This document shows positions 146-38,787 of a stretch of DNA of 64,000 nt, piece by piece. Made by a program: the position numbers and the translations under genes. The DNA comes from Porphyra umbilicalis. Taxonomy: Eukaryota > Rhodophyta > Bangiophyceae > Bangiales > Bangiaceae. Below the pieces are notes generated by a model. That model saw nothing but the letters and a program-made list of their open reading frames with translations. It did no database searches and was not told the origin of the DNA. Location: contig KV919094.1 of the NCBI GenBank assembly GCA_002049455.2, positions 1-64,000 of the forward strand. Reading direction: 5' to 3'. The first letter of the stretch is position 1; each line of letters opens with the position of its first letter.

Positions 146-155
146 GCATAAAAGG
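146..155 (+). promoter_or_regulatory. TATA-like box of the protease gene
   Basis: The sequence GCATAAAAGG lies about 80 bases before the ATG of the Ulp1-like protease. A TATA-like box sits at a similar distance before the likely start of the leucine-rich-repeat gene, which supports a shared promoter layout in this block. Confidence 0.5.
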
Positions 156-232
156 GGGAGCCCGCGACAATCCAGAGCCCATGCGGGTCCATCCTTGTCC
201 TGCTTGTCGACACCCCCCCGCCACCCTCGACA

Positions 233-1285
233 ATGGCGACGTCCCCGACACGCCCGCCGATCACGGTCGAGACGTTGGTGCGCGGCTCCCGCCGTGCTGC
301 CGCCGCTGAGGGTCCACCCGACCCCCTCGTGGCCGACGCGCCCCGGCCTGGTGTGACCATCGTCCTACCGATCCGTGAATACGCCTCTACGCGTGAATAC
401 GTCTTTACCACGCGGGAGCGCGACGCGCTGCACAATGGGACCATGCTACGCGATGAGACGGTCGACAAGATTGGTCAGCTGCTCATGTCGCTCCACTGCT
501 CTGAGCGTGAAGCTGGCGTCACGTGGCTGATGCCGTCTGCCACGGTCGGAATGATTCTGGGTGGCTACTCTGCCGACCGCTCTGGTGTTGGCGGCGGGGT
601 GCGCCCCGCGACTGACGCGCGGTGGGCGTCTGATCCGTCAGAGGCCTTCCACTCCTCGATTTGTCGCAACACTGCGAGCACGTCGCCATTCAAGATGGAG
701 ACGGTCTTCCTCCCAATCGTCACGGGGCAGCATTGGATCCTGGCCGTCCTTTGTGGTTTGCCAGGTCTGCTAAAGGACTTGCACCTGGAGGCCGCCAAAA
801 CCGAGGTCGTGACCGGCCGCCGACGGCTCGATGCGGCCGCCGTCAAGCGGGGGAGGCTCCACCGATGCCAACTCTTGATGTTTGACTCGGCGGTCGGTTT
901 CTGTAACCACGAGCACGTGGCCGCGTCTGTGCGCGCGTGGCTGTTGGAGGAGTTTCGTTGGCGGCACACGGAGGTGCCACCCAATCGGCCCTTGTTGGCC
1001 CGCTTCCTGGGTGGCGTCGTCCTTTGGACACTCGTGCACACCGGCCCGCAGGCCACGGGCAGCTTGACTTGTGGGGCCTTTGTCTTGGAAGCGCTGCACA
1101 CGTGGCTTGTTACGAGCGCAGGCAAACGTGCTGCATTGTTGGGAAAGGTGTGGGACTCGCACAAAGGTGACGGTCGAGATTGGGTGCTCGGCGAGGATGC
1201 CGGTCCACGGTTTTTGAAGTGGATGACAACGTTTCTAGACGCGTCCACGTCTCTTCCCGTCGATGGCAGTGTGGTTGTGGTGTAG
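233..1285 (+). CDS. Ulp1/adenovirus-type (C48) cysteine protease
   Basis: This 350-residue intronless ORF looks like a C48-family cysteine peptidase of the Ulp1/SENP/adenain fold. The catalytic order His-Asp-Gln-Cys is visible: His in GQHWILAV (about residue 165), Asp in LMFDSA (about 221), and Cys in TCGAFVLEAL (about 283). The oxyanion Gln is in PQATGSLTCG, with the same spacing to Cys as in SENP proteins. Family members cleave SUMO-like modifiers or viral precursor proteins; the substrate here is unknown. Ulp1-like proteases are frequent cargo of large DNA transposons and of nucleocytoplasmic large DNA viruses. That fits the Fanzor gene 8.5 kb downstream, although the two are not shown to belong to one element. 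The ATG follows a TATA-like box by 80 bases, and a long T run follows the stop. The first 100 residues are not recognisable. Confidence 0.72.
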   Translation: MATSPTRPPITVETLVRGSRRAAAAEGPPDPLVADAPRPGVTIVLPIREYASTREYVFTTRERDALHNGTMLRDETVDKIGQLLMSLHCSEREAGVTWLMPSATVGMILGGYSADRSGVGGGVRPATDARWASDPSEAFHSSICRNTASTSPFKMETVFLPIVTGQHWILAVLCGLPGLLKDLHLEAAKTEVVTGRRRLDAAAVKRGRLHRCQLLMFDSAVGFCNHEHVAASVRAWLLEEFRWRHTEVPPNRPLLARFLGGVVLWTLVHTGPQATGSLTCGAFVLEALHTWLVTSAGKRAALLGKVWDSHKGDGRDWVLGEDAGPRFLKWMTTFLDASTSLPVDGSVVVV

Positions 1286-2361: not shown

Positions 2362-2799
2362 ACAGGCCGTGTGGGGTACTGACCCTTGTCTGCGTTTGTC
2401 GTTTTGTTCAATAGGGTCCCTTCGGGACAATGCAACCACACGCGACGGACGCGAGACGGTCCGCTTTGTCCACCGCGTCCGAGTGGGTGGTGGGGGCATC
2501 AGAGGCCCTCGGCGATCCTATCAAAACGGTGCGTCCCCGCCCGCCACACTCCGTCAATGCTGTCGTCTCGTCCACACCCGCTCCTGTCAGGTCCCCTTTT
2601 CCAATGGGGTTGCCGAGCACCGCGCCCCGTGACGGCGGCAGGGGCGCCTACTGTGCAGCAGCACTACGGACCGTTTCGCATGCGTCTGATGGGAAAGAAA
2701 CGGGCCGACGTGGGATGCTGGAAAACACGCACACCAACAGCCCCGGCACCGGTACACTCCATATCCGGATATGTGCGCTCCAGTGGTCTGGCACCCTGC

Positions 2800-2807
2800 T
2801 ATATAAG
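2800..2807 (+). promoter_or_regulatory. TATA box of the LRR gene
   Basis: TATATAAG lies 83 bases before the ATG at 2890, almost the same spacing as at the protease gene. Confidence 0.5.
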
Positions 2808-2889
2808 ATCTGGGAGAGCAGGGAAAAAAGCGTTTTTCCGGTCGCGCCACGCACACTGTCGCCCCCCCCAGTTCCTGCATCCCGGCGAC

Positions 2890-4323
2890 ATGAGCGGACA
2901 TTGGCTGTACACAGCGTGTAGGTCGTCCCACCACCAGTGTGGTCCTGACGCGTGGCGGGTCCTCCAACCAAAAAACATTGTCAGGGGCGCGCCTCTGACA
3001 CTGTCTCCCATTCGTGTGCATTCGTGCGCGCCCCGGGTGGACGTTGGGTCTCACCAGGGGCACGTGGACGCGCTGAGCGCGGCACACAAAGACCGTCAAG
3101 AGCGCCCCTGCGGCCAGTGCTGCAACACGGTCGTCTTGTGGTGCCACCGCTCACCGTGCCCACCCCCGACGCGACCACCGCCGGGCTGTTTCCGCGGGCC
3201 CCCCGCCACCGTGCGGGCGCCCCAGTCTGTGCCCCCTTCCCCCCCCCTCCCCCCCTGCCCTGTGTTCACCAATGGACAAGCAGGACGCCTGGTTGGGCGC
3301 ATCCGCGAGAGTGGCTGTTGGTTTGCCGCTTCGCAAGAGTTGGAGGCGGAAGATGTTGAAACGTTCCTTGTCGAGGGGATCGAGGTCGCGGTGAAAACCC
3401 GACCGCTGTGGTGCATCCACCTCGCTCGCAACCGGTTGACGAAGCTGAGCTGCTTTGGATGGTCGGCGGCGTGGGGTGTGCGTGTGCTCGACATCTCGTT
3501 CAACCCCTTGCGCCATTGGCCCAGAGATCCCCTCCGAGCGCTTGCCGCGACGCTGCGCTCCCTCACCGCGACCGACTGTCCCTTTACTACCGCGGACGTC
3601 ACGGGGCTGGTGCACGTGCGGTGGTTGGACCTCGCACGCAACCAGTTGCGCGCACCGCCGGATGGGCTCGCAGGCCTGACCAACCTGGACGTCCTCAATT
3701 TGGCCGACAATCAGATCACCGCCCGAGACTGGCCGGCGTTTGTGGCCAACATTGTCAATGTGGAGCACAACCCCGTGTGTCGGTCCCCGGGCTGGTCGGT
3801 TTCCGTGACATCCCGGAATGGCGACGCCGACCCGACCGTCGTCGGTCTGTCGCGGGAACTTCCCGCCCCGCCGCGACTCGCAGCCGTCCCCGCCGATGCA
3901 AACGGTGGGGCGACGGACGACGAGGGCGCTGCAAGCCACCCACCCGTGGTGGACGACGGACAGGAGGAGGACGGGACCGCCGCGGACGGCGGGCGGGAGG
4001 AGGGGACGCCCAGCTCTGAAACGGTCTACGAGTGGTGGATTGTTCCACGGACGAGGACGACGACAAGGACGGCAGGGACGACGCGGACGGCAAGGAGGGC
4101 GGCAGTGGTGACGCGGACGACAAGGAGGGCGGCAGTGGTGACGCGGACGGCAAAGAGGGCGGCAGTGGTGACGCGGACGGCCAGAAGCAGGGCAGGGGCG
4201 ACGCGGACGACGACAACGAGGACAGTGAGGGCATCTACGAGTCAGACGTGGATGTTTCAGACATGGTCGACGCGGACGAGGGAGCCGCCACGGCAAACGA
4301 TCCCATGCAGGTGGACCCCCTGA
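2890..4323 (+). CDS. Leucine-rich-repeat protein with acidic repetitive tail
   Basis: One open frame runs from the ATG at 2890 to 4323. The part that looks like real protein lies at about 3280-4026 and has three to four leucine-rich repeats. Readable repeat cores include LWCIHLARNRLTKL, VRVLDISFNPLRHW, VRWLDLARNQLRAP and LDVLNLADNQITAR. LRRs usually bind proteins, so a recognition or adaptor role is possible. After about 4026 this frame turns into Arg/Thr-rich sequence. The neighbouring frame (4032-4535) instead reads as an acidic tail of GDADGKEGGS repeats followed by an acidic stretch. The true product therefore probably crosses a frame shift or an unseen intron near 4026. The 2890 start is inferred from the TATA spacing; no homology covers residues 1-120. 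Confidence 0.5.
   Translation: MSGHWLYTACRSSHHQCGPDAWRVLQPKNIVRGAPLTLSPIRVHSCAPRVDVGSHQGHVDALSAAHKDRQERPCGQCCNTVVLWCHRSPCPPPTRPPPGCFRGPPATVRAPQSVPPSPPLPPCPVFTNGQAGRLVGRIRESGCWFAASQELEAEDVETFLVEGIEVAVKTRPLWCIHLARNRLTKLSCFGWSAAWGVRVLDISFNPLRHWPRDPLRALAATLRSLTATDCPFTTADVTGLVHVRWLDLARNQLRAPPDGLAGLTNLDVLNLADNQITARDWPAFVANIVNVEHNPVCRSPGWSVSVTSRNGDADPTVVGLSRELPAPPRLAAVPADANGGATDDEGAASHPPVVDDGQEEDGTAADGGREEGTPSSETVYEWWIVPRTRTTTRTAGTTRTARRAAVVTRTTRRAAVVTRTAKRAAVVTRTARSRAGATRTTTTRTVRASTSQTWMFQTWSTRTREPPRQTIPCRWTP
4081..4200 (+). repeat. 30-bp tandem repeat, four units
   Basis: Four exact-length 30-base units begin at 4081, 4111, 4141 and 4171. They encode a ten-residue acidic/Gly unit (GDADGKEGGS) in the frame opened at 4032. 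The unit length is a multiple of three, so copy number can vary without breaking the frame. Confidence 0.85.
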
Positions 4324-8231: not shown

Positions 8232-8239
8232 TATAAAAG
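8232..8239 (+). promoter_or_regulatory. TATA-like box
   Basis: TATAAAAG lies in an otherwise very GC-rich setting, upstream of the 8.3-9.7 kb open frames. It could be the promoter of a gene leading into the Fanzor, but the first exon or start is unresolved. Confidence 0.35.
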
Positions 8240-9728: not shown

Positions 9729-12700
9729 ATGGCAACCCCCGACGCGGGGGACCACCCGGGCGACGACGCGGGTGCCGGTGCAGGGGGCGCGCCGGCGAGC
9801 GGCGGCGGCAAGCGCTCTGGTCGACGCCACTGTGGCGGCTGCGGGGCGACGGGGCACTATGTGCGGACTGTCCAGCCGACGCAGCCGCCAAGGCTGCGCA
9901 CGCGGCGCGCGTGGCGGCCGCCCGGGCGGCCAAGGGCGCCGCGGCCGGCAGCGGCCGTACCAGGTGCGGTGCCTGCCACGCGCGGGGCCACACGCGCGCG
10001 AGCGCAGCGTGTCCGCTGCGTGCCGTCGCCCACGGCTGGTCGGACCACAATGAGGACCGCGGCCGCGACTTGGCGTGCGCCGACCAGTACCGCATGACGG
10101 GGGAGGTGACGACGACGGTGGCCGTGTCGGTCGACCGGTTTTTTGGCGTCTGGCGGCGGAGGCTCCCGCGGCCGCCCACAGACTGCGCGCCGCCAGCGGG
10201 ACGCCCGCCGACCACCTCGGCTCATCGCAAGACCGAGGCGTCTGCCGAGGCCGACACCAATGCGGCGGCGGGCGCGGCTGCGCTGACAGAGTTGGCTACG
10301 GCGCAGACGCAGCATCTGCGCCTCGTCTCCATTGTCATGGACGGCACGATGCGGTACCTGCTCGAGGGCGTCGACGGTGGTGGCGGCGGGCTGGGTGCGG
10401 GTGGTGGTGGCGGCGGCCGACGCACGCTCGACGAGTTTATGGCGGCCGTGCCGGCGTCGCTGACGGGCAGCTCGGGCTTGCGTGGAAGCAGGTCGCCTCG
10501 ACCGTCTCGTGTCGCGGTGTCCACGCGTTTGACGGCGCCCCCCGGCGGGCGTGTGTCTCTTGCTCGGGGCGGCGCGCGCACGCCAAGCCGCGTGCAGACG
10601 TCAAGGCGGCAACCGGCGACGGCGATTACACCGCCTTTGTTGCCGCGTCGGCGGCAGTGGCGGCGGCCGTAACCGAGCCAGAGCAGCTGCCGTGCAGCAC
10701 GCTGCTGCCGAGTCCGGCCGAAACGGGCGGCTGGGCGACCGTCGCAACGTCCTTTGAAAACCACTATGTGACGCACGTCACGTCGGCGGTCAAGGCCATT
10801 GCAAAGTGCATCGTCCTCGCGGTCTACCCGCAGGCCCCGGCGGTCTCGACGGACAGCGCCGCGCGGCACTGATTGCGGTCCTCGTTGCCGGCCTGCAAGC
10901 CGCCGACGGCACGCGCCCGCCGTCGTTCAAGTGGCCGGCGGGCAAAGTGTCTGCGGCGCATGGGGCTGCCATGACGGCCGCCGCGGCGCTGGCCTGCGAC
11001 ACCGTCCTCGTGTACACGGATGGCGGCGGTCGGCGGCGCTCGCTGCTGCACCTAGACACGTTGGCCCTGCGACAGCGGCCGCTGCACGTCTACCCGTTGC
11101 TGCACTATGCCCAGGCCCTGTGCGTCGGCGCCGGCATCGAGGCGGCCGACACGTCACCTGGCCGAGTCGCTACGTGCACCGGGTACGCGCGCGTCAGCGG
11201 CGCGCTGCTCCGCAAGCGCCTGGCGGTCCACGGGGGTTCAATCCCACCAGAGACGGCCGACGGTTTGGTCGTGCAGGCGCTGCTCCGCCGCGCGGGCATC
11301 ATCCGCGCCTCGACGGTCGTTGGCCCCTCCATCGTGTCGGACGGCGTCGGCGTGCACTTTACGATACGACACCCCGCCACTGCAGCGTCGACGCGGCCGC
11401 TCGGCGGGCGCGCCGCAGGGCGGCCAGTGACGGTCGCGGGGGGGGGGTCCGACCGAGACGGCGAGCGTGCGGACGCAGCTCGACCGCATGGCGTTTGCGC
11501 CCGACGCTGTCAAGGCGCTGTCTTTGTCGGGTGGGACCCGGGCGTCGCGTCCATCGTCGCTGCCTACTGCCCCGGCGCAGTGCCGTTTGCGCTCTCACCG
11601 GCACCGCACCTGCACGCGTACCGGGCGTATCGGGCGCTGCGGGTTGCGGCCGACGCGCTCGCGCGGGCGGCCATGGCCGCGACCGCAGCTGCAGAGTGCC
11701 ACGTGCGGCGCAGCGGTCGGTTACTGCCGACCGTCGACACGCTGCGTGCAACGGTGGCCCAGATTGTTCGTGCGGCCAAGGCCACCGCGGCGGGCCTACC
11801 CGTCGGCGGCGGTGACGCGGTGTGCGGGACGACCAAAAAGCGCGGCCGTGGCGCGCTCGGCGCGTCGACCGGGGCGGAGGGATCTCCCCCAAAGCAGAGT
11901 CGTACAGCTCTGGTGGGGGGCCCGCCGGCGGCCACGCCGGCGGCACAGGCGTCTGTGCCGCCTTTGGAGGACGCACCGACGCAGCCGGCTGCTGCGCTGC
12001 CCCCCCCCCCCCCCCCGACCCGCCCAAGCGGCCGCGGTACACGCAGCCACATACGGCGACGAGTGGCTGACGCCCGCGCAGCGGAAAGAGGTCGCCCGCA
12101 AGCGGGGGACGAGCGGCCCCGACGGCCGGCGGCCGCTGCTGACGCGCCTGCGCGCGCTCGCACACGCCGCGGTCAACGACGGCGGCGTCCAACCGTGGCG
12201 CCTCCCCAACCACGTGTGTGTGTGGATGGGCGAGGCGGCCCTGTTCAAGGCGTCGACCGACGCGGCCGCCGACGCAGGCGCCAAGGCTGAGGCGGCAGCG
12301 AACGCAGAGGCGGCGTGGCACGCCCTGTCGGTCGGGGGCCACCGACACGCTGCGCGCGTCTGGCACAGCGCGGCGCGCACCGCGAAACAGGCGGCGGCGG
12401 CGGCGCGCAACGCAAAGCGCGCGGCGGCTGCGGCCGCCGCCGGTGCGCCGACAGAGCCCCCGCAGCCTGGTGTGCCTGGCACGCCGCTTCCGTCGGCAGA
12501 CCGCCTACGGGTGCTGTGTGCCGCCCTCCGGCGTGCGGCCACGACCACGAGACCGCGCGCGCGCGCCCGCCGGCGGGGCGACGCTGGTCGTCTCCAAGGG
12601 CGCGTACCGCGAGGCGACGGGCGCCGGTATGACCAGGCGCGCCGAGGCGGCAGCGGCGGCGGCGTGGGCGGCGACCAACCCCGACGTGTCGCGCGAGTCA

Positions 12701-13731
12701 CTGACGGCCGGGTGCTCCCTCAAAGTCGCTTCGTGGGGCGCGTGGGTGGTGGCGGCCACTGCGCGCATCGCCCGCACCTACACAGACGCCTATCAGGCGG
12801 CGTACGGGGCGGCCGCGACGTACGGTCAACGCAAGGCGCGGCTACACGCCCTCATCCAGCGCAACCGGTACGCGGCAGTTGGCCGCCGCTTGACGGGTGG
12901 GCTCCTGCGGCGCACGGTGGACGGCACCAAGGCGGTGCTGGCATTGGGCGGTGTCGGCCGCGCGCCGGCAGCGTCGACCTCGTGCGGCGCATGGCCAAAC
13001 ACGTGCACCTCGTGTACGTGGACGAGCACAATACGAGCCAGACGTGCGCCGAGTGCGGTCACGGCTTGTGCAACACGTACGTGTCGCCCGACTCGCCGGT
13101 CGACCTGACGCCCCTCAAGGCGGCAAGCAGCTACGCGCATCGCGCGTCGGCGTCGGCGGCCAAGCGCGCCTCGCCCCTCCGCGGCGGCCGGCGCGCGCGA
13201 CGGGGTGTGACGACCGGCAGTCGGTCGGGCCCACGCGACGGTGCGGCTGCCCAGCGCGCCAAGGAGCACGCAGAGGCGGTGCGGACAAAGGTGCTGCAGG
13301 CGATTGCGGCTCACGGCAAGTGGGCGTTTGGGACCGACCCGCTGGCGCTGTGGGGGGTCAAGCTGTGCACCAACGTCGCGTGTCCCGCGACGTACGTCGG
13401 GCGAGACACCAACGCGGCGCGCAACATGTCCAAGATTGCCATCAAGAGCATGCAGGGTCGGAGCATCTACCCCCACATCCGGGGGTACACCGTGTCACGC
13501 GCGCCACCCCAGGAAGACCCAGTCCAGGCGACGCGGCACGCGGCTGCGATCGAGGCGGGTAGCTACGAGGCCGGCTACGGGTGGACGCGCTGTTCACCCA
13601 CGTCGTGGGAGCGTTGGCGCCGACCTGTCGTCACCGACCGGCGGTCGTGGAGGCCGGGACGACCCCGGCGGTCGCGGAGGCCGGGACGGCCCCCACGGCC
13701 GTGCCAGTGGCGGCGCCAACGGTGCGGGTAG
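9729..13731 (+). pseudogene. Fanzor (eukaryotic TnpB-like RNA-guided nuclease), frame-disrupted
   Basis: The family's hallmarks are readable but spread over three frames. From the ATG at 9729 come two CCHC zinc knuckles, CGGCGATGHY... (near 9840) and CGACHARGHTRASAACP (near 9965). A helical region follows at 10.2-11.3 kb, then VSDGVGVHFTIRH (near 11340), like the conserved DG segment ahead of RuvC in Fanzors. RuvC-I is GAVFVGWDPGVASIV, with the Asp codon at 11535. A zinc ribbon follows: VYVDEHNTSQTCAECG (near 13018) pairs with CTNVACPATYVGRDTNAARN (near 13367), whose GRD holds the RuvC-III Asp (13405). The Glu of VDE matches the relocated catalytic Glu reported for Fanzors. Frame changes fall near 9865, 10560, 10850, 12001-12017 (a C run), 12550 (a GC repeat) and 12975. 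Fanzors cut DNA guided by an omega RNA. This copy is either decayed or damaged by assembly errors. Confidence 0.82.
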
Positions 13732-13929
13732 AGGCGCTGGGTGTGGTGGCAGACGGGGCGCACGACGCAGCTGCTGCGTCAGCAAGCGGTGACCTGGCGA
13801 CGAGTAACGTCGGCCAGATGGCTGCTGCCAGCCCCGCGCCAGCCGTGGGACGCAGCCACTCGTCTTCGAGCCGCCTCGAGCGGGTAATCGTAGACTGTTC
13901 ACCAGCTTCATCTCGTGGGGTGTGAATAG
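13732..13929. other. Spacer downstream of the Fanzor
   Basis: This is 198 bases of sequence after the Fanzor stop with no ORF. In TnpB and Fanzor loci the guide (omega) RNA usually overlaps or follows the 3' end of the gene, so this and the hairpins beyond are the place to look for it. Confidence 0.3.
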
Positions 13930-13960
13930 GGAGCTTCGCTCCTCACCTCTTCCAGAGGTG
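13930..13960 (+). other. Two adjacent short hairpins, candidate omega RNA element
   Basis: GGAGC-TTC-GCTCC is followed one base later by CACCTC-TTCCA-GAGGTG; both stems are perfect. They lie 200 bases past the Fanzor stop, on the same strand. A transcript terminator or a chance structure is also possible. Confidence 0.3.
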
Positions 13961-14425
13961 ACTACTGGTTCGTCTTGTGTGGACTGGGACTTGTGCTGGG
14001 TAGACGACCGACTCTGCGATCCCCTGGATCATACAGCTTCCGATGCATCGGTGTCGCGATCCAAAGGTAGTCCAAGAATTTTCTTGCGAGGTAGCACCCG
14101 TCTGAAATATTTTGACGATCTGAATTGGCCGTCACGAAGTTGCAACGCGTGATCCGCGACCAGAAATCCGAAGCAGCGCTTCACCCGTCACGCGCGAAAG
14201 AGCATAACTCAAGCGCTACTCCAAGTCGAAGAGCCATGTTCTCGAGAGGTACCCGGAAGCCTCCTACCCCCCTTCTGTGAGAGTTTTGAGACTCTAGCGT
14301 CATTTCTCACACTTCCAGGGCAAAGTCGAGAGAGGTTTTAATGCGTGAGATACACTTTTGTGCGGTGGGTCCCGCACTGGAGCGATCGAGTTGTGCTCAG
14401 TTAAAAAGCAGGGTAGGGTTGCACA
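13961..14425. other. Intergenic, less GC-rich
   Basis: Base composition drops after 13.95 kb, marking a likely edge of the GC-rich gene block. I see no gene in this stretch. Confidence 0.4.
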
Positions 14426-14785
14426 CGACGCCCCTTTTTCGGGGGCGTCAGGGGCGCGCGACGGATAAGACGCCTTACTGACGCCCCATTAGGCAGCCAA
14501 AACGCCCTCACGACGCCCCAAGTAGCACCCTCAATACTCGCAATATGAGTTAAGTGGCACCCATACTGTGCTCTCGTATGAAATGTTTGAATCAAGACTG
14601 GGTGCCTGTCCCCAACCAAGGTGCACAGCTGCCACCTGCTGAATCATGTAGACCCCCCTGAACACTTTCTCTTCGCGACGCCTTGCTGACGCCCTTTTGA
14701 GTCGGGGCGTTAAGGGCGCACGACGCCCAAATGACGCCCTAGTGACGCCCTTAACGACGCCCTTAACGACGCCCCGGGCGTTCTG
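14426..14785. repeat. Cluster of interspersed GACGCCC motifs
   Basis: GACGCCC or its complement GGGCGTC occurs more than a dozen times here, often as GACGCCCTTAAC. The stretch also contains GTAGCACCC and GTGGCACCC. A second cluster with GGGCGTGAT units and the complementary GGGTGCTAC lies at 38.95-39.09 kb, so this looks like a dispersed repeat family. Confidence 0.6.
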
Positions 14786-16003
14786 AGCAACCCTAAAGCA
14801 GGGTACCTTGTAAGCGTGACGCATGTAAACGCGCAATGACTGTACATACTGTAGTCGCCAAGAACCACCCAAGGAAGCATGTAACATGGTCAGTTCAAAT
14901 ACCAAGAACTTCTTCAGTTCATTCCAACCGTTTCATGGAAGGTGCTACTTGACAACTGGGCCGGGCCTGTGGCCCGAAGTGGGACGACACCGTCGGTGTT
15001 GCTTGGAGCTCCGCCCTGTGCTGTGCCCCTCGTGCCGCGGCCTCGCTCCACTTGCCCCGGAGGCTGCAGCTGCTGCCACTGTGCAGTCGATGCAGCAGGG
15101 CCACCGTAGCTCGAGACGGCCCAGACCCCTCTCCCGGGCCACGGGGCGGCTCGGGCAGCCGCTTGAAAACCGAGATTCCTTAGCGGAGTCCCAGCAGCCG
15201 CTGTGCGTGGCGCCTTCAGCAACCCCGTAGGTGTCCCGCCCGGGCCAGTCGCAGAGCGCCCCGTTGTCGACCCAACCCCTTCTCGAGGGCGGGTGCATGC
15301 CGCTCCAGCGACACACCTGGTGTCAGCAGTCAGCCCGTAGCGGCCCGACGGCGGCCTCCGCGGACCACTGCATGGATGACCACTCCGGCACAGGCGGCAC
15401 GCATGTGCGGCCTTCTGCCCGCGGTGGGGACCCCACCACCCGTCCCGTGTCCCATCGCCAGGGCGGTGTCCCGTGCCGCCACCGGCCTCGGGTCGGAAGA
15501 ACCGCCTTGGCCCTGTTGGCAGCCATCGGCCAACCAGCAACCGCCGTCGCGGGCTCACCAGTCTGGCCGGCCGAGCAGCGTGCGTGCCGCCTGCATTCTG
15601 GGTCAGATGTCCCAGGGCAACACCTTCGGCAGCCGCCAAAGTTGGGCGGTTGACAACTTTGTACCGACGGGTGACAGAGCCGTCGGGCGACGTAGGGCCT
15701 CTGACGTACAGGTGGGACACGATGCTCCAGATGTCACGTAGCGGCCGTCTCTAATTGGTCTATGCGAGCATCTGTGACTCTGGGTCCCGTCTGCTGTCAT
15801 GAGGCGGCGCGACAGGCAGCGCGAGAGGCGGCTGTGGGTCCGAGAGGCACGCCGCCACTTTCTCCGCTGGGCACCGAGGTGGCAGCGCGACTGCCTTAGC
15901 CCCGCCGCACGCTGCCTCTGCGGCTGTATGCAGCCTTGCAGATGGCCCCGCGCGTGGCCCTTCCTGTCTCCAGGGGCAGACGAGCAGGTGGACTGTGACG
16001 CCG

Positions 16004-24766: not shown

Positions 24767-26272
24767 TTACTCGAGCTCGCGCACGATCGACCGCTGCCGC
24801 TCTGGCTTACGCTTCGGCACAGCACCTTTAGCGCTGTTGGCCACCACGTTGCGGTGCTTGCGCACCTCGTTGGCCGCAATCTCCGCCCGTATCCGCTGGG
24901 CAGTCTTGATCGGCTTCGGTACGTGCCGCTTCTTGGCGATGCGACGCACATCGGGCAGCGCCGCATGGCGCTCAACGACCGCAGTTGCATAGTTGATTGC
25001 TGCCTGCTCGGGCGGCAGCAGCGGCTTGATCGGTCGTGAAGCATCCGCCTTCCACACCCGCACGTCGGAGTCGTCAGACCCAGACAGCACGTACCGGCCA
25101 TCACCCGAGTAGAGCACCGAGAAGACCTTCTGCATGCGCTTGGTGTGGTACACCTCCTTCGAGCGGCCGGCCTCGGTGTCCCACAAGCGCACCGTCCGGT
25201 CATAGGAGCCCGACGCAAACTCCCGCCCCGTAGGGGAGTAGGACACAGACATGACGGCGCCGACGTGGTCCTTGTGCACCGCCCGGGCGCCGACGGCAGG
25301 GCCCACGCCGCCGCGCGGCCGGGCGGTGCCAGCCGTCTGCGGGCCCTTGGCCTTGGAGCCGCTGGCGCCGCCTAGCCGCCGCATGTCAAACGAGTAGCAG
25401 TTGCCGTCGTCGCAGCCGATGGTGAAGTTGAAGGCCTCCATCGGGTTCCACGCCACTGCGTTGGCTCGCAGCGCCATGACCAGCTTGCGCAGTGGCGTGC
25501 GCTCCCGAATATCGTACAGGGTCACTGACCGATCCGAGGCGGCCGACGCCAGCAGATCCCGCTCCACCGGGTTCCACGACACCGTGTGGAGGGAGTCCAC
25601 CCCCCACGTCAAGCGCTGCAGCGGCTCGCTCCGCGTCTCATCCCACACCTCCACCGCGTCTGAGGCGGTAGCAAAGAGCGGCCGCTTGTAGTGAGCGTCG
25701 ATGGCCGACAGCGGCGCCGACGCCAGGTAGGACATCTCCCCACCTGCAGCTGCAGCCGCGCCTGCAGCTGTCTCTTCGCCGCCATACACGCCCCCTACGC
25801 CCTCCACGGGCCCGGCGCGCGTCTGCAGCGCGTCCCCGTCCGTCGCAACGCGCATGGCGTAGATGAGTTTGGCGTCCGAGACGGCAAGCACCCGCGACGA
25901 GTCATGCGAAAATGACACATCCCGAATGAACGCACGCGGCAATGGTGTACGAGCGGCAATGGCGCGCTGCGATGGCAGGTGCCACAGCTTGAGCTCCCCA
26001 TCCGCGCTCGCCGACGCGACCAGCGCGGTGGAGACGCGGGAGCGCGCCAGCCCGTACACCCCATCCACGTGGCCGGGGGCAAGGGAAAACAGGAAGGGGC
26101 GGGCAAGCATACGGCCAACCTTGGCGGCATTCAGAGCGCGGACAGCCTCGAGCGGCCGCGATGGCGGGTGCAGGTGAGCGGCAGGGTTTCGGCCGGTCCG
26201 TCGCACGGCGCCGGGGCCGTCCGAGGTGCCCTTCCAGGACGCATCCGACCGGCTCAGCACCTTGACCTTCAT
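24767..26272 (-). CDS. SOF1: WD40 protein SOF1/DCAF13, small-subunit ribosome biogenesis
   Basis: This is an intronless 501-residue ORF. The start MKVKVLSR is the conserved N-terminus of Sof1/DCAF13, so I use the ATG at 26272 rather than the upstream in-frame start. Next comes the family segment VRALNAAKVGRMLARPF. Seven or so WD repeats follow, seen as endings such as LKLWH, VEVWD, VTLYD, VRLWD and VRVWK. The C-terminal Sof1 domain contains ERHAALPDVRRIAKKRHVPK. Sof1 acts with U3 snoRNP in 18S rRNA processing in the nucleolus. Compared with yeast, an extra loop of about 30 residues (GGASGSKAKGPQTAGTARPR) interrupts the middle repeats, and an Ala-rich insert lies near residue 180. Absence of introns sets it apart from its two neighbours. 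Confidence 0.93.
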   Translation of the reverse strand: MKVKVLSRSDASWKGTSDGPGAVRRTGRNPAAHLHPPSRPLEAVRALNAAKVGRMLARPFLFSLAPGHVDGVYGLARSRVSTALVASASADGELKLWHLPSQRAIAARTPLPRAFIRDVSFSHDSSRVLAVSDAKLIYAMRVATDGDALQTRAGPVEGVGGVYGGEETAAGAAAAAGGEMSYLASAPLSAIDAHYKRPLFATASDAVEVWDETRSEPLQRLTWGVDSLHTVSWNPVERDLLASAASDRSVTLYDIRERTPLRKLVMALRANAVAWNPMEAFNFTIGCDDGNCYSFDMRRLGGASGSKAKGPQTAGTARPRGGVGPAVGARAVHKDHVGAVMSVSYSPTGREFASGSYDRTVRLWDTEAGRSKEVYHTKRMQKVFSVLYSGDGRYVLSGSDDSDVRVWKADASRPIKPLLPPEQAAINYATAVVERHAALPDVRRIAKKRHVPKPIKTAQRIRAEIAANEVRKHRNVVANSAKGAVPKRKPERQRSIVRELE

Positions 26273-26728
26273 GGCGCAGGCAAGGGCGACCGCTTCAAAA
26301 CGGCAATCCCAAGCAGCAGGGGAATCGACCAGAAGAAAGTTGCCGCGACGACCACGACGGTGTCGATCACAGCACGGCAGCGGCCAGAGAAGAACGGTTG
26401 GGGTCGCCGGCGGTATCACTTGCCAATCGTAATAGCGTAACCACGCACAGTCCAGTATTGTCTTGGCTATTCAAACTTACTTTCCGTGATTCTACTGCGC
26501 AGAAGAAATCTCTCGAAGAAATGCGTATGTCGCCGATTTACAGCCTTGTTGCTCCGCCCAGTCGCCTCCTCAATCGAACAGAGCCCACCACCCATCTTGT
26601 CGACGCCGCTCAACCCCTTAGACTCCTCCGTCGTGCCGCCCGTCGGCTTCGCGTGCTAGCTCCTTCCCCACCACGTCCCTGTGCGTCCCGTTGTGTTCAT
26701 TGTCTTTGCGGACTCGGGCGTTGCCACC
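26273..26728. promoter_or_regulatory. Divergent promoter region SOF1 / COX6A
   Basis: 456 bases separate two start codons pointing away from each other, so both promoters must lie here. No TATA box stands out on either side. Confidence 0.55.
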
Positions 26729-27826: not shown

Positions 27827-30560
27827 GAGGGTACGCTCCAGACCGTGCGTGTCCGGTCTGGCCCTCCCGAGATTGTGCCACATCCATTCATTAATGTGGA
27901 TGTGCTCGCCCATCCCCGTGATCGGCGCTCGGTTGTGCGTGTGCGCCACATTCAACAGACCCCCGTTGTGTCCCGGTAGCTGCCGTGCCAAGGTCCAAGG
28001 TTGTCTGTGTGGTCTGTGTGGTCTGTAGCTCCTGCTTTTTTCGCTTCTGTTCTTGCTTTAGTGTGCCTCCCGGTTTTTCTCCCCATTGGCGGCTCGTGGC
28101 TCCGTCAGGGAGAAATTGCCTCGAGCGCGCCTACGCTCAGTCAGTGCTCTGTCTCGTGCTTGACTATTGTGCTTCCCTTTAAAAAAGTAGAAAGTCAATA
28201 ACCAGTCTTGTACAAGAATTCGTGGTTTGATTGGCTGAGAGGGCAATTCCGACCTGTGGCAGGCAGGTGTCACTCTTGTGGGACACACCCCAGAAGCGCG
28301 CGACTGGCGCCGATTGCCGCTCCACGCGGTGCGGCGGAGACACGCGGCGGCGGTGCGTCTCACGTCTTGCCCGCCCCGTCGCACGCCCCGCCGCCCCGCT
28401 CCCGTGTCTGCGCCGCGGCGCCCAGCGCCCGGCGTCGGCCGCGTCGCGGCCGACGCGCCGGCGGCCGCGCCGCACCCACCCCTGTAGCCAGTCTAGTCCA
28501 AATGTTGATCATTCTGTCGACCTTCTCAGCACGACGCTTGCTCCACGACATACAATGCATATATATGGAAAGAGGAGAGCACGAGGAGTATGTTGGTGAT
28601 TTTCTTTTTCTCATAGCGTGTGTTAATAGTGATTTATGAGCAGAAGAAGAAGAACTGATGTAATGGGATGCGTCTTTAAAGTTGACCATCCCTCTCAGCC
28701 AATCATGCTGTCGGCTTTTTGACGTGGCGCGCCACACGCCAATCAATTTGACGCATTGCAGTGCGTTTCTCACGCTCTGGAGGGTGGGGAGGCCTGCAGG
28801 GCCTTCTGAGGCGCCTCCTGGCATGACCAAGAAATACAGGAAAAAGAGAATAAAAAACAGCACGAGAAGGCTGTGTGTGCCCGGTATCCCATTCTTCGTC
28901 AGAAAATCAACAAGACCTACATGCATACATCTGGAGAAAAAGGAACTCTTGGACCTGCTGTAGGCCGTCTTCTGGGCACTGGTACGTAGAGTATTCCCGC
29001 TATGCCTTTATCCAGGTCACGGAATCGGCGCGTACGACCCCGTGGGGAGGTCTCGAGCCTAGTTAACATTTCCGGCGGCGGTGGTCAACATTTGACATAG
29101 CACTGCTACGTGACGTTAAGAGCACGTCTATCGGTGGGCCATCCCACCGTCGCCAAAGTACCATATTTTGGGCAGTTTGGGGATGGCGCTGACGCGGCAT
29201 CTCTCTCGGTGTATGGCCTGGTGGCAAGCCAGATTTGTGGTCACGAAGTTCCTCGGAAAAGTACGACAGGATCACGAGGCACGAAGGAGAGGTGGATTGT
29301 TCAGGACCCTGGGTGATTCTGTTGAGCGCGGGTGATTCGGCGCATATGATTGGTTCCTGTCGTTTGGCGCATGCATCGTCATCCCCATCCCCAAAAGTCA
29401 TGTTTTTGGGGATGGGGATGGCGATATGGGGATGGCGGATGGCATTTTGAGGATCCGATAGAGATGCCGCATCGCCAAAATGCCGTCTGAGATGGCTTTT
29501 TGGCGCACCGATAGACGTGCTCTAACCGCGCGAGGGCGGCGGACCTCGGGGGGATCCACCGTGTCCGCGGGTGGGGGCGCCGGGGCGGGATCCGCGGCGC
29601 CGCCGGGGGGGGGGGGGCGCACCACGGCGGCCGGCGGCGGCGCGTGGGGGGGCGATGGCGCCCGCCGGCGGCGCCGCGGGCGGGCGCGTCAGTGAGCCCC
29701 GCCGCGGCGTGGCGCGGCGCGGCGCGGCGGCGGCGGCGGCACCGAGCCCCCCGACGCGCCGCCGCCGCCACGCCGCCGCCGCGCGCCACACGGGGCTGCG
29801 GGGTCGGCGCTCGCGGCCGCCGCGCCGCCTGACCGCCCCTCGTGACGGGCGGCTGATACGCGCGGCACGGGGTGCGCCGTGGGGGCGGCGGCGCTTCCAG
29901 CGCGCGCACCCGCGGGCCGTGGTTCCCCCCGTGCCTCAAACCCCCTCCACGCGCCTCCGTGACCCGGTCCGGCGCGGCTGCCGTTTTGCGTCGCTGGTCG
30001 CTGCGGGGATGCGGGAAGGCGGACTCGGGGGCGCCGCCCTGTGGGCGACCACCGCCGGGCAGAGGTGCCCACCGGCTCGCGCCGGCGGGAGCGTGCGCCC
30101 CCCGCGCCGCGGCTGGCCCCGCCGTCGGGGGTGGGGGGCTCGGCGCGCCGCGGCCGTCGGGCACGCGTTGGTCCCTGCGGGCGGGCGGGCGGGCGGGCGG
30201 GCGGGCGGGCGGGCGGGCGGGCGGGCGGCGGGCGGGTGCTGGTTGCTGCCGGCAGGGGGGGTGGTGCGGCATCGTGTAACGTGCGCCGCGCCGTGGCGGC
30301 AGGCGTGACGCGGCGATTCGGGAGGGCGGAGGCGGCGACGCGGCGGGCGCGGCCGCGCGCGTGCCAGGGGGGAGTGACGCTGGCGGGGCGGCGGGCGGAG
30401 CGCGGGCGCGGCGGGCGGCGCGGCGGGCGGCGCGGCGGGCGGGGTGCCACGCTCCCGCTGCCGCCGCTGCTGCCGCGCTGCCGCTGCGGCTGCTGCACGG
30501 AGCGTGCCGCGGCGTCGCGGCGCGGGCGCGCGCGCGGGCGTCGGCTGGCAGCAGCGCGGG
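27827..30560. other. Intergenic, becoming extremely GC-rich
   Basis: 27.8-29.5 kb shows no gene. From about 29.5 kb the sequence becomes a GC- and CpG-rich block running to the TATA box at 30561, probably the upstream regulatory region of the secreted cysteine-rich protein. Its long ORFs on both strands are compositional artefacts. Confidence 0.5.
30178..30228. repeat. (GGGC)n microsatellite
   Basis: About twelve uninterrupted GGGC tetranucleotides lie in the GC-rich upstream region. G4 runs of this density on one strand can fold into G-quadruplexes. Confidence 0.9.
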
Positions 30561-30568
30561 TATAAAAA
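30561..30568 (+). promoter_or_regulatory. TATA box of the cysteine-repeat protein gene
   Basis: TATAAAAA is a near-canonical box isolated in GC-rich DNA. It lies 174 bases before the ATG, leaving a C-rich 5' leader with ACACAC repeats. Confidence 0.65.
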
Positions 30569-30734
30569 GGGACCCCCCCGAGTGTTCCTGCCGCCCCACC
30601 CTCGCTCCCCACCCCCGCACACACACGCACACACGCGCTTGCACACGCCCCCTTACCCACACACTCGACGTTGCTCTGCTGCGTCGGTTCCCCACCTCCC
30701 TCGTGCCTCTCGCGCCCGCCCCCCCCCCGTCACC

Positions 30735-31352
30735 ATGGCATTCAAGGTGGTCGTTGCCGCCATCGCTGCCGTCGCCCTGACCGCCTCGGCCGCCGTCGCG
30801 TCGGCGGCCAACCTGCCGACCACCGCCGTGCGCACGGGCCTCGGCGCCACGTGCAGCGCGTACGCCAAGTGTGACGCGGGCCTCGTCTGTGAGCACAACA
30901 AGTGCGTCAAGGAGTATGTGCCCGCGGGCAACAAGTGCGGCGGGCCCGTCAAGTGCTACCGCGACGCCTCCTGCGTCAAGGGGACCTGCTTGACGTATGT
31001 GGCCGCGGGGGAGCGCTGCGGCAAGCGCACGGACAACCAGTGCTATGGCGACGCGTCTTGTGTCAAGGGGATGTGCCTCAAGTACGTGGCCGCGGGGGAG
31101 CGCTGCGGGGAGCACACGGACAACCAGTGCTATCACGACGCGTCCTGTGTCAAGGGGACGTGCCTCAAGTACGTGGCTGCGGGTAAGCGTTGCGGGAAGC
31201 GCACGGACAACCAGTGCTATGGCAACGCGAGCTGCGTTCGCGGCAAGTGTGCCACGTTTGTCGGTGCTGGCAAGAAGTGCGGCGGCAAGCGCAACACGCA
31301 GTGCTTCACGGGCCTGGTGTGCGAGCACGGCACGTGCCGCCGCTCGTACTAG
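30735..31352 (+). CDS. Secreted cysteine-repeat protein (dickkopf-N-like repeats)
   Basis: This is an intronless 205-residue protein. The first 27 residues (MAFKVVVAAIAAVALTASAA...) form a clear signal peptide. The rest is built from five to six repeats of about 31 residues following C-x(5-8)-C-x4-SC-x2-G-x-C, for example GERCGKRTDNQCYGDASCVKG. Each repeat contributes four cysteines. The first and last repeats are more divergent and contain GLVCEH. Such repeats resemble the dickkopf N-terminal cysteine-rich pattern found in secreted proteins of many protists; the function is unknown. It is probably extracellular and disulphide-rich. The strong TATA box and the Kozak-like CACCATGG suggest high expression. 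DNA-level identity among the central repeats indicates recent duplication. Confidence 0.85.
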   Translation: MAFKVVVAAIAAVALTASAAVASAANLPTTAVRTGLGATCSAYAKCDAGLVCEHNKCVKEYVPAGNKCGGPVKCYRDASCVKGTCLTYVAAGERCGKRTDNQCYGDASCVKGMCLKYVAAGERCGEHTDNQCYHDASCVKGTCLKYVAAGKRCGKRTDNQCYGNASCVRGKCATFVGAGKKCGGKRNTQCFTGLVCEHGTCRRSY

Positions 31353-32290
31353 GCGCCTCGGTTGGCGTCGGGGGAACGTCAGAGGACGGGGGTGGACAAG
31401 AGGCTGGGGGGCGGTGCTCAAGACCGCCCGCACCTCAGCCGCAGACGTGGGGGTCACCCCGCACCGGTACGCAACGGTCACTGGTGCGTGGCGCCCTTTG
31501 GCGTGAGTCGTATGTGCATTGCTTGGCGTGTACACCTAGTCTTGTGGCGCACGTTGTCGGCGAGTAGCAGGCGTGCGCGTGCGTATCTTGCTCTGATGCA
31601 CAACGTGAAAGTCACACCTTTCTTGGACAAACATGCGTGGCCACCCGAAGCGTCGGTCCCCGTGCGCCGCGCAGTAGTCCCCAAAACCGACCGTAGTGCC
31701 ATTGTCATTCAAGGACGATTTAGGACGAGTCTGGACCCACAAGAGCGCGTCAACGCTGCCTTGGACGTACCGCCACGCCGGCTTCTGGGTCCGAATTGTT
31801 GCAGTCTGGGCTGGCCGATGGGCTTCACTCACATTGTAGCTCACCGCCACTGCACTGACCTCAGGCCGACCCCGTTGGAAGCGCCTTGACGTGACGGGTC
31901 CTACGGCCTTGGAGAGCGGCGTGAAGCTTATCGACTCGGGCGGTTCACGAGTGTCCACGTAGTGCTGTAGCGGCTTCTCTGCAGGACCGTGCATTCGTTC
32001 CGCAAGAAATCGCGGCTCTCGCCAACTGAATTGAATAATCTCCGTGCAGTAAGCACGGACACGGTTGCGGTCCCCTGACCAATGAGCACACTCATCTGAT
32101 GATAACAGCCTCTGGCTGGCCAGAAGAATGACGATCTCCTCCTTCCCATTGGCTTGTCACAATACTGAAAAAAGAGTCCTGCATGGAAGGTCGAGGTCGA
32201 CCGAGCATTTGTCAATTCAAGAACCTGTGAGTGACTCGTACATAGGTTATTGTAAAATATTCGCTTCTCACCACTAGTGTCTAATCTACC

Positions 32291-36346: not shown

Positions 36347-36972
36347 ATTCCCTGGCCTTTAGGACAGGGTGCTCTCAAAGTGTGGTGATGCACACATTTA
36401 CTTAGATCACGGGACTTGCTCTCCGTTTCAGAGGTGGCAGTCTGCATTCGTGTCCTCAGGGCGTGTCGACGTTGGAAGGGTCACGATGACGCTAAAAGCG
36501 AATAGAGTTACGTGGCTGAGAAGGACTGTCCTGCCACCAGGGTCACAGGGCCCGGACGGTGCCTGCCCCCCTACCACCCCCCACCGCCTAGAGTTGGGCG
36601 CGGCGACCGCGCGCAGCGACTACGGGGGTTGAACGCGCCCGCGATGACCCGTGGGTGATCGTGCCTGCGCGCCGGCTTCTGTTGCGGCGGCCCGTCGGCC
36701 TGCCATCTACCGGCGCGGTTAGAGGTGCGCTGCGCGGCGGAGTGAAAGCCCCTCCCGTCGGCGTCGCGCGACGCCGGCGAGCCGCCGCCGCTGCGGTGCC
36801 GGCGGCGGCACCTTTTTTCCCGCCCCACGTTTCCCCGGCCACGGCAAAGTGGCTGTACGTGCCCCCGTGCGCGCTCGCGGCTATGGAGTCGGCCAGCGTG
36901 CCCGGTGTCGCTGCGTCGCCAAGCGGGCCACCGCCCTGAAGGCCAGGGTATTGCACGCACGTGCCTGGAATT
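36347..36972. repeat. Interspersed repeat family B, copy 1
   Basis: It begins TTCCCTGGCCTTTAGGACAG and ends with GAAGGCCAGGGTATTGCACG followed by GTGCCTGGAATT. The two ends carry inverted CCCTGGCCTT. The core is GC-rich without a conserved ORF. Copies 2 and 3 lie at 39.3 and 46.5 kb. Confidence 0.8.
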
Positions 36973-37030
36973 AGCAACAGTTGGAGTGCGGGATCTTTGG
37001 GAGAACGGCTGTAATTGGAATCGGGTAATC

Positions 37031-37061
37031 CAGTGCGTTCTCGTTACAAAAGAATCGTGTA
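37031..37061. mobile_element. Truncated family A MITE end
   Basis: CAGTGCGTTCTCGTTACAAA and the following AGAATCGTGT match one end of the 131-bp MITE. The match breaks off next to the TA at which the 628-bp element begins. Confidence 0.65.
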
Positions 37062-37064
37062 CTA

Positions 37065-37692
37065 TGGTGCGTGTCCCAAAAATGAGACATCGCGGTTTTT
37101 TCTTTTTTTCTCGGCCCACTGGCCTTCTGCAACGGTCCGATAATGTAATGTGACCCACTCGGTCCCACTGTGCTTCCAGAACAGCCCCTGACAGTGTTAG
37201 CAGAGGCGGCACATCATGACGTGTCATGGGGGAAAGTGTCATTCATTGCAACTTCGACAGGTGACGATCACGCGGCCCAATCAAATGCACAGATACTAGA
37301 GCAGGAATGTGCTGACAATTTGTGCACCAAGAAAAGGGCACCACCTTACCAATAAAAACGTGAAAAAGACCCCCATGTAGCCCCCTGTGAGGAAAACACG
37401 ATTTGGGACACCCCTCATCGAAGCTCCAGTTAGCACATGAGCTTTGGCGTTGCAAACCTTTAACCCCAAGAACCTGAAAAAGACTGGCTCCAAGATCGTG
37501 GCTATCTGAGAGGTCCACAGAACAGGGCCCACGGGCGGGTATTAAGGAGTTGTCAGCCAAGCACGCGTCGGGAGAGGCTCTTTCCATGGAGGCCAGCCGA
37601 GAATTTTCTCGTACCCCACGCCGCCTGCCCCCGTGCAGTGATGTGTCAGTCCTTCAGAAAACGCGCATGTCTCATTTTTGGGACACGCACCA
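37065..37692. mobile_element. 628-bp TA-flanked element, family C
   Basis: The terminal inverted repeats are 26 bases and perfect, starting TGGTGCGTGTCCCAAAAATG. TA lies directly outside both ends (37063-37064 and 37693-37694). The interior has no ORF of note, so it is a non-autonomous Tc1/mariner-like element. Confidence 0.85.
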
Positions 37693-38329
37693 TAGAGAAG
37701 AAGATCTGAGATCACCAAAATGTGCACGGCAAGAAAGAAAGAATCATTTTTTTCGCGTAAGTAGGATAGTGTGATCCTCAAGCTCAGGGGACTAGACACT
37801 AGACGGGTGCCCCTCCCACACTGTCTGCGTCGGTGGTTGCGGCTGCGACGTCAGCTTCTGCTTCTGCAGTGGCCTCTGTTTTACAGCGACAGTGATCCCG
37901 AGACTGCCTGGCCGCCGTCCGTCTTCGTACAGTCATTATTCGGTTAAATCCGTCACCATTTGTTTACAGTTCCGGACAGTACTTAGATTCCTCTGGCTCG
38001 ACTTGCGATCGGCTGCCGTGAGGTCATTTCAATACTACTGGGAAGAAAGAGAAGTACGAAAGACAGCATTTACGGTGAACTCGGACAAGATAAAATCCAA
38101 TTTTACTTGCCTTCGCAGAACCTGATCACGCAAGAGTGTGCCTCGTACCGACCCACCATGCCCCATCACTCTTCATCCTCCGCCCCAGCTAAAACCACGT
38201 CATCCGTCACATCGATGGCCTCAACATCGGTCTCAGCCACCACCCAGCGACGCATCACCTGCGCATGGTCTTGACCGCTGACACTCTCGAACTCGCGCTG
38301 CAGCGTCGTGTTGGCCATCACGGCTACTA
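37693..38329. other. Intergenic between mobile elements
   Basis: Only short ORFs and AT-rich patches; nothing supportable. Confidence 0.4.
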
Positions 38330-38460
38330 CAGTGCGTTCTCGTTATAAGAGACAGCTGATTCGGCTCAATATGAAGAAAAAGTGGCCCACACGGACTGGA
38401 ATGGAAGACTCGCGACCCATATTCTTTTGTACACGATTCTCTTATAACGAGAACGCACTG
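38330..38460. mobile_element. 131-bp MITE, family A, copy 2
   Basis: This is the best-preserved copy. The terminal inverted repeats are perfect over 23 bases (CAGTGCGTTCTCGTTATAAG and on), with TA at 38328-38329 and 38461-38462. It has the same length as copy 1. Confidence 0.9.
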
Positions 38461-38732: not shown

Positions 38733-38787
38733 CCCGGTTATATCCACTGTGGATATAACCGGGACGGATATAACAGAAGAATGACTG
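38733..38787. mobile_element. Pogo/Tc1-like terminal sequence, second copy
   Basis: The hairpin GGTTATATCCACTGTGGATA and following TAACC, then GGGACGGATATAACAGAAG and ATGACTG, is followed by TA. It matches 6143-6199 in order and spacing. Confidence 0.55.

What the first reader, a model, noticed from the sequence alone, without database searches (positions are those of the whole stretch)
9729..13731. Fanzor (eukaryotic TnpB homologue) with split frames
The RuvC-I Asp (11535), zinc ribbon with the VDE glutamate (13018) and GRDTNAARN with the RuvC-III Asp (13405) are all intact. That makes a programmable RNA-guided nuclease scaffold the best reading. Two zinc knuckles near the N-terminus are unusual. 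At least six frame changes separate the parts, some exactly at homopolymers.
Basis: partly seen in the sequence, partly recalled or inferred. Interest (0 to 1): 0.9.

Follow-up and report, generated by a model that had tools for sequence, protein, structure and literature searches.

The report
Giant Fanzor nuclease in mobile DNA
This is a broken copy of an unusually large relative of Fanzor, the RNA-guided DNA-cutting enzyme of eukaryotes, carried by a large mobile element present in dozens of copies in the same genome, and it suggests that this enzyme family can be bigger and travel in more complex elements than described in the papers seen.

Summary
The window copy carries the Fanzor active-site signature in frames split by indels. 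It is one of at least 40 places sharing this DNA (the others 95-99% identical) in an 84-Mb genome. A sibling (L022) reads as one 1,921-codon open frame with every motif: zinc knuckles, Fanzor1-type TDG, DPG RuvC-I, the displaced glutamate six residues before the zinc finger, RuvC-III RD. PF07282 passes its cut-off in 32 of 54 places; dN/dS is lowest in the nuclease part (0.31). One paper gives about 800 residues as the top size of Fanzor1s.

Fourteen copies lie downstream of an Ulp1-like protease gene. Of 20 fetched copies, 17 end in one 39-nt double hairpin; its last 27 nt occur 66 times. Thirty ends lack a nearby Fanzor; 9 of these follow an antisense RT-like element, and 2 of 3 readable minimal ends are flanked by direct repeats of 7 and at least 11 nt. 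No transposase was identified, and no full-length match to a named Fanzor was found. I file it as a divergent variant of Fanzor1; RNA guidance and copying mechanism are inferred.

The parts
152..1285 (+). Ulp1/C48 cysteine-protease-like ORF of the same element
   Evidence: PF02902 21.1 bits (cut-off 20.7); 30% identical over 338 aa to the protease ORF of the type A copy in C60; 14 of 17 genomic relatives lie 11.4-21.1 kb upstream of a Fanzor on the same strand
2383..4323 (+). ORF with leucine-rich repeats (best match residues 408-446)
   Evidence: PF13855 E=1.7e-6, PF12799 E=2.6e-6; 34% identical over 185 aa to the LRR ORF of the type A copy in C60
8199..13969 (+). Fanzor gene plus right end: the module shared at about 96% DNA identity between type A and type B elements
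   Evidence: blastn of fetched copies
8232..8239 (+). TATAAAAG, TATA-box-like, at the start of the shared module, present in the 6 type A copies, L022 and the window
9831..9880 (+). first zinc knuckle (CGGCGTTGHNVKTC in the open copy; disturbed by an indel here); approximate end
9965..10012 (+). second zinc knuckle CGACHARGHTRASAAC (in the open copy L022 its first Cys is changed)
   Evidence: PF15288 zf-CCHC_6 E=4.7e-4, below cut-off
11016..11024 (+). TDG motif, described for the WED domain of Fanzor1
   Evidence: sequence; motif from PMC10711439
11535..11537 (+). RuvC-I catalytic Asp of DPG
   Evidence: sequence
12000..12017 (+). run of C where the reading frame changes in the window copy
13024..13026 (+). 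displaced catalytic Glu (E-x6-C); invariant in 15 of 15 metagenomic relatives
13045..13383 (+). split zinc finger CxxC ... C-x4-C with an insert of about 100 residues
   Evidence: PF07282
13405..13407 (+). RuvC-III catalytic Asp of GRDTNAARN; invariant in 15 of 15 relatives
13923..13925 (+). stop codon of the Fanzor frame
13931..13969 (+). 39-nt double-hairpin right end, proposed 3' part of the guide-RNA scaffold

Best explanation
The window holds a frame-broken copy of a Fanzor1-like gene inside a large, high-copy mobile element. It joins a two-zinc-knuckle N-terminal part to a core with Fanzor1 motifs, under purifying selection strongest in the nuclease part. Shown: at least 14 copies have an Ulp1-like protease gene upstream, in the two types compared also an LRR gene, and most fetched copies end in a fixed 39-nt double hairpin. 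Inferred: transcripts through the right end give a guide RNA with the hairpins as scaffold and the flanking DNA as guide, and the protein cuts DNA matching that flank, so that empty sites are converted or the element is kept when it moves. Inferred: copying starts at the right end and often stops early, leaving 5'-truncated copies with duplicated target sites, by a Helitron2-like or reverse-transcription mechanism supplied in trans. The knuckles would bind the RNA or single-stranded intermediate.
For: Copies and open frame. PF07282 over cut-off in 32 of 54 places. Fingerprints DPG, E-x6-C, C-x4-C...RD, TDG. Glu and RuvC-III Asp invariant in 15 of 15 metagenomic relatives while the residue before the Glu varies. 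dN/dS medians 0.31 (RuvC-II to III), 0.41 (knuckles and following part), 0.47 (TDG to RuvC-I), 0.53 (linker), 0.68 (C-terminal tail), 0.71 (N-terminus). Same right end in 17 of 20 fetched copies, with 0-2 changes in 39 nt; 66 right ends, 0 with the pattern read backwards. Direct repeats of 7 and at least 11 nt at two minimal ends, 0 of 702 mismatched pairings reach 7. Protease linkage 14 of 17.
Against: No full-length similarity to any named Fanzor or TnpB by sequence. In P0001 and P0002 the PF07282 match covers model positions 16-37 of 60. The RuvC-I to Thr-Ser spacing, about 500 residues, lies outside the published 125-275. AlphaFold models were unusable (pLDDT 31 and 34). Most fetched copies, the window's included, have broken frames. 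The open copy L022 has lost the first Cys of its second knuckle. The protease was not found upstream of most Fanzor places (14 of the 50 compared), nor in C141 and C3. No RNA data. One of three readable minimal right ends (L047) shows no direct repeat. The left end was not seen.
Confidence: 0.72

Rival explanations
1. The protein is a Fanzor-derived transposition or nucleic-acid-binding factor that no longer works as an RNA-guided nuclease.
For: Long inserts within RuvC and the zinc finger, zinc knuckles, modest constraint outside the core and in the tail, many broken copies.
Against: The catalytic Glu and RuvC-III Asp are invariant in 15 of 15 relatives, and the nuclease part has the lowest dN/dS.
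Confidence: 0.17
2. The right-end copies are made by target-primed reverse transcription (a LINE-like machine in trans), not by a Helitron2-like rolling circle. This is compatible with the best explanation, which leaves the copying machine open.
For: Minimal ends of 35-39 nt, two of three with direct repeats; an RT-like element nested at the right end; of 29 Helitron_like_N places only one shares a contig with a right end, 111 kb away.
Against: No poly-A or simple tail at the right end; the RT call rests on motifs seen by eye, with no Pfam, NCBIfam, PHROG or relevant PDB match; truncated Helitron2 Fanzor1 copies of Chlamydomonas show duplications too (PMC3627910, passages).
Confidence: 0.4
3. 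The loci are remains of an integrated giant virus.
For: Fanzors occur in giant viruses (PMC3627910, passages); high GC, large size and unusual gene content.
Against: No relative of the Fanzor, protease or ParB-like ORF in the IMG/VR collection (these scans reach mainly close relatives); many copies with a transposon-like right end.
Confidence: 0.08
4. Chance motifs in an unrelated zinc-knuckle protein.
For: Sub-threshold Pfam scores for the window copy; Ala/Gly/Pro-rich sequence.
Against: 0 of 300 simulations for the strict pattern; conserved residues in relatives; 32 of 54 places over the cut-off.
Confidence: 0.03

Closest known systems
Fanzor1 (SpuFz1, GtFz1, PpFz1)
   Same: DPG RuvC-I, displaced Glu six residues before the zinc finger, RD of RuvC-III, TDG motif; mobile-element context; conserved right end with two predicted stems (SpuFz1 guide RNA: two stems and a linker); many right ends without the gene (ghost loci in Spizellomyces).
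   Different: 1,403-1,921 codons against 638 for SpuFz1 and about 800 at most; long RuvC and zinc-finger inserts; N-terminal zinc knuckles; no short element with inverted repeats seen; linked protease and LRR genes.
CRe-1, CRe-2 and CRe-3 Fanzor1 Helitron2 elements of Chlamydomonas (Bao and Jurka 2013)
   Same: Fixed hairpin-bearing 3' end, 5'-truncated copies, short target-site duplications, no transposase seen in the Fanzor element.
   Different: No shared 5' end or Helitron identified here; the elements carry other genes; only two duplications were seen here.
Fanzor2 / IS607-type elements
   Same: DPG and displaced Glu.
   Different: The scan found no serine recombinase (PF00239) in this genome; the TDG motif is described for Fanzor1.
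Prokaryotic TnpB (guided_TnpB, NF040570; phrog_506)
   Same: Weak zinc-ribbon matches, E=0.063 and E=0.004.
   Different: DPG in place of D-hydrophobic-G; displaced Glu.

Membership tests
Fanzor1 | DPG at RuvC-I | tested here: met
   GWDPGV, residue 1124 of P0002
Fanzor1 | Glu six residues before the first zinc-finger Cys | tested here: met
   E1622-HNTSQT-C1629; Glu in 15 of 15 relatives
Fanzor1 | C4 zinc finger followed by RD | tested here: met
   CxxC then C-x4-C-x6-RD, with an insert of about 100 residues between the pairs; PF07282 over cut-off in 32 of 54 places
Fanzor1 | TDG motif in the WED domain | tested here: met
   TDG at residue 950, upstream of RuvC-I; the domain itself was not modelled
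Fanzor1 | Spacing D-X(125,275)-[TS][TS] of Bao and Jurka (a descriptive range of 2013) | tested here: not met
   about 500 residues (D1124 to T1625); long linker of low-complexity and Ala-rich sequence
Fanzor1 | Fold (REC2, WED, RuvC) and place in the Fanzor1 clade of a tree | tested here: inconclusive
   AlphaFold pLDDT 31 and 34; no tree was built
Fanzor1 | Guide RNA from the right end and RNA-guided DNA cleavage | not testable with these tools
   conserved predicted double hairpin only
Helitron2 element | 3' hairpin and asymmetric terminal repeats at both ends | tested here: inconclusive
   3' hairpins present; left end not reached
Helitron2 element | RepHel gene linked | tested here: not met
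   29 Helitron_like_N places; only C26 also holds a right end, 111 kb away (searches compared by eye)
IS607 / Fanzor2 element | Serine recombinase TnpA | tested here: not met
   0 matches to PF00239 at E <= 0.01 in the genome; 10 of 14 control genomes ring

The most novel reading that the evidence does not exclude
The minimal mobile unit is the guide-RNA scaffold itself: right-end RNA is copied by a resident reverse transcriptase into broken DNA, leaving 35-39-nt tags with short target duplications. Each tag places the scaffold next to new flanking DNA and so creates a new guide for the giant Fanzor, a self-expanding guide repertoire. The reverse-transcriptase-like element nested antisense in the right end would be the supplier.
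Probability: 0.1. Interest if true: 0.92.

Novelty: new variant of a known kind. Interest (0 to 1): 0.62.

Why it matters
If the protein is active it is about 1.8 to 2.4 times the length of the largest Fanzor1s mentioned in the paper read, with added nucleic-acid-binding modules, and it widens the known design range of eukaryotic RNA-guided nucleases. The genome offers what a test of the open question 'what does Fanzor do for its element?' needs: one fully open copy, many broken copies, right ends without a gene, and traces of target sites. It also ties a Fanzor to a protease/LRR gene pair and to a nested reverse-transcriptase-like element at the right end. Searches of the held library for Fanzor with Ulp1 (one paper, a methods guide, seen as a listing only) and for Fanzor with zinc knuckle (none) found no report of these combinations; that library lacks most subscription papers and preprints outside PubMed Central.

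Tried and rejected
Structure prediction of metagenomic relatives (alignments A3 and A4) gave pLDDT 31 and 34 and was not used for fold searches. PDB searches and the protein-database searches did not reach named Fanzors; one search returned nothing. The PF02902 family scan of the genome missed the element's own protease and was followed by a protein query. The idea that left breaks in L010, L019, L020 and L027 were 5' truncations was dropped: the left part of L020 recurs, often in pairs about 5.5 kb apart, and looks like an LTR retrotransposon inserted in the Fanzor element. Helitron RepHel in cis and IS607 recombinase were rejected. Rfam found nothing in the window; ARAGORN found no tRNA. Scans of bacterial/archaeal genomes and viral contigs found no relatives. 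Direct repeats were also sought at the left breaks of six copies without a convincing result. The organism was not identified.

Dropped rows and limits: one search lists only matches of 150 bp or more. In some searches insertions relative to L022 were left out and gapped codons skipped; one search used only pairs with more than 50 codons and dS above 0.03, and these pairs are not independent. One search used 50 of the 54 PF07282 places (left out: C313, C15, C303, C96), 23 of the 109 RT matches, and 17 protease loci made by merging the 23 rows. One search scored 40 of 58 candidates and one search scored 40 of 209, so copy numbers are lower bounds. The script prints 12 for L049, but only 11 flank bases were held, so I report 11.
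Full report
What is there. The window is the first 64 kb of contig C334 of an unnamed 83.8-Mb genome in 665 contigs. It holds eukaryotic genes, such as a Sof1/WD40 gene at 24770-26470. DNA 12900-13500 has 40 scored places, the window's own included (58 first-look candidates); the other 39 are 95-99% identical. I fetched 20 of these copies. In the Fanzor region 18 match the window at 92-99% over 2.6-8.0 kb, in one or two blocks; L025 matches at 85% over 4.8 kb and L024 at 90% over 2.0 kb. The genome scan lists a further open frame of 1,660 codons on C56. The split frames are therefore a property of this copy or its assembly, not of the gene. Between window and L022, 25 of 27 indels are frame-shifting and 13 of these lie near a run of three or more identical bases, so assembly error and decay cannot be told apart. 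In the last 417 codons 19 of 21 sequences have no in-register stop.

What the protein is. In the open copy P0002: zinc knuckle CGGCGTTGHNVKTC at 554, TDG at 950, DPG at 1124, E1622-x6-C1629, C1736-x4-C1741, and RD at 1748. Its second knuckle has lost the first Cys, which the window copy and the metagenomic relatives P0004 and P0005 keep. Passages of PMC10711439 name DPG plus the glutamate six residues before the zinc finger as the molecular fingerprint of Fanzors, TDG as a Fanzor1 mark, and about 800 residues as the size that some Fanzor1s reach. PF07282 matches the window frame at 21 bits, P0001 at 25.2 bits against a cut-off of 26.3, and 54 genomic places at E up to 1, 32 of them over the cut-off, the window's own among them; in P0001 and P0002 the match covers only positions 16-37 of 60. 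NF040570 guided_TnpB is at E=0.063 and phrog_506 'transposase' at E=0.004. The strict pattern occurs in 0 of 300 simulated sequences, a loose one in 1 of 300. Protein-database searches returned only close relatives, from JGI and ENA sources: 5 proteins with the 901-aa query and 15 with the zinc-finger region, one of which is also among the 5, the 15 being 78-93% identical; a third search returned none. In those 15 the displaced Glu and the RuvC-III Asp are invariant, while the residue before the Glu may be D, E, Y or V. dN/dS (median over pairs): 0.31 for 1590-1790, 0.41 for 520-930, 0.47 for 930-1200, 0.53 for 1201-1480, 0.68 for the C-terminal tail, 0.71 for 130-520. So the nuclease core is the most constrained part, and the region with the knuckles is constrained too. 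The start codon is unknown: Met98 or Met519 are candidates.

Against membership. The spacing between RuvC-I and the Thr-Ser pair is about 500 residues where Bao and Jurka give 125-275 (PMC3627910, passages). No named Fanzor was matched over its length, and structure models failed. I therefore file it as a divergent variant and keep 'works like Fanzor1' as the functional claim.

The element. Right of the stop codon lie 44 nt, then flanking DNA that differs from copy to copy. Of the 20 fetched copies, 17 keep this end with 0-2 changes in 39 nt; L010, L016 and L017 replace roughly the last 35-39 nt by the same other sequence. The last 39 nt fold into two hairpins; an older subfamily (L033, L034) keeps the second stem with another loop and has a different first stem. 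The 27-nt end pattern occurs 66 times with up to 3 mismatches, 48 of them perfect, and 0 times in the reversed control. Of the 66, 36 have a Fanzor zinc-finger hit or the DNA probe within 1.5 kb upstream and 30 do not. Nine right ends, all among the 30, have an antisense RT-like ORF 6.1-6.5 kb upstream, and 9 of 50 Fanzor places have that ORF antisense within 12 kb downstream, 6 of the 9 at 1.92-1.97 kb. This ORF shows TQQGDPLGP and FHDDV (by eye); no Pfam, NCBIfam, PHROG or relevant PDB match confirmed it. The site thus looks fixed, and the nested element sometimes doubled (C50, C55, C288).

Four of the 30 lone ends were read. L048 keeps at least 85 nt of the Fanzor 3' end. The other three share only 35-39 nt with the window. 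Two of these three have a direct repeat touching, or within a base of, both borders: 7 nt (L046) and at least 11 nt (L049); L047 has none. Among 702 mismatched pairings of the 27 distinct ends none reaches 7. This looks like one-ended copying from the right end. PMC3627910 describes 3'-overabundant Fanzor1 Helitron2 copies with duplications of about 7-19 bp in Chlamydomonas. Here only one of 29 RepHel places shares a contig with a right end, 111 kb away, so a Helitron supplied in trans and a reverse-transcription route both remain open.

Leftwards the element is large. Type A copies (C88, C60, C272, C232, C25, one on C5) agree with the window at about 96-97% from 8199 on, but upstream of it only in short blocks at 62-73%; type B copies (C141, C3, C274, C8) agree with the window further left, to about 5.3-6.0 kb at least. 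So the Fanzor and right-end module has probably been exchanged between diverged elements. The window and the type A copy of C60 both carry a C48 protease ORF above the Pfam cut-off and an LRR ORF, in the same order, 30% and 34% identical between them. Of 17 protease loci in the genome, 14 lie 11.4-21.1 kb upstream of a Fanzor on the same strand. The reverse is weaker: the protease was found for 14 Fanzor places of 50, and not for C141 or C3 although about 16 kb upstream of their right ends was read. Contig C232 has two copies with right ends about 20.7 kb apart, and repeats known from upstream of one copy begin 0.3 kb from the right end of the other, which suggests a unit of about 21 kb; the left end itself was not read. 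A 723-aa ORF further upstream in C60 (L045) has a weak ParB-like match, E=0.047.

How it most likely works. By the established biology of Fanzor1 (SpuFz1: a guide RNA of two stems plus flank, and RNA-guided double-strand DNA cleavage; PMC10432273, passages), the right-end RNA would guide the protein to the unoccupied site. Cutting there favours spread or retention. The zinc knuckles probably bind RNA or single-stranded DNA. None of this was tested here.

Papers. PMC3627910, PMC10432273, PMC10711439 and PMC11423790 were seen as passages only; other papers as search listings only.

Noticed in passing
L010, L016, L017 and contigs C38, C50, C55, C67, C116, C288, C447: An element of about 8.2 kb (size from the spacing of right ends and RT matches) with an RT-like ORF sits antisense near one fixed point just inside the Fanzor right end, sometimes twice in a row; diverged relatives form arrays of about 8-kb spacing on contigs such as C57 and C210.
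   Followed up: partly
L010, L019, L020, L027: A repeat with ends about 5.5 kb apart (LTR-retrotransposon-like; the end CTTCACA is seen in L019, L020 and L027) abuts the Fanzor part; 209 first-look candidates in the genome for the L020 probe, 40 scored.
   Followed up: partly
L045:743-2914: 723-aa ORF upstream of the type A protease gene with a weak ParB-like match (phrog_1033, E=0.047).
   Followed up: partly
window 36348-47245: Three copies of a repeat of several hundred bp at 36.3, 39.3 and 46.5 kb, 64-94% alike; relatives also occur in the fetched loci L019 and L023.
   Followed up: no
window 29382-31535 (-): 718-aa ORF overlapping an 87-bp tandem repeat (30952-31229); no Pfam match.
   Followed up: no
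window 14414-14796: Dispersed repeat, 91-92% identical to a stretch upstream of the Fanzor in C141 and C3.
   Followed up: no
contig C232: Two Fanzor copies head to tail, unit about 21 kb; a good place to read the left end.
   Followed up: no
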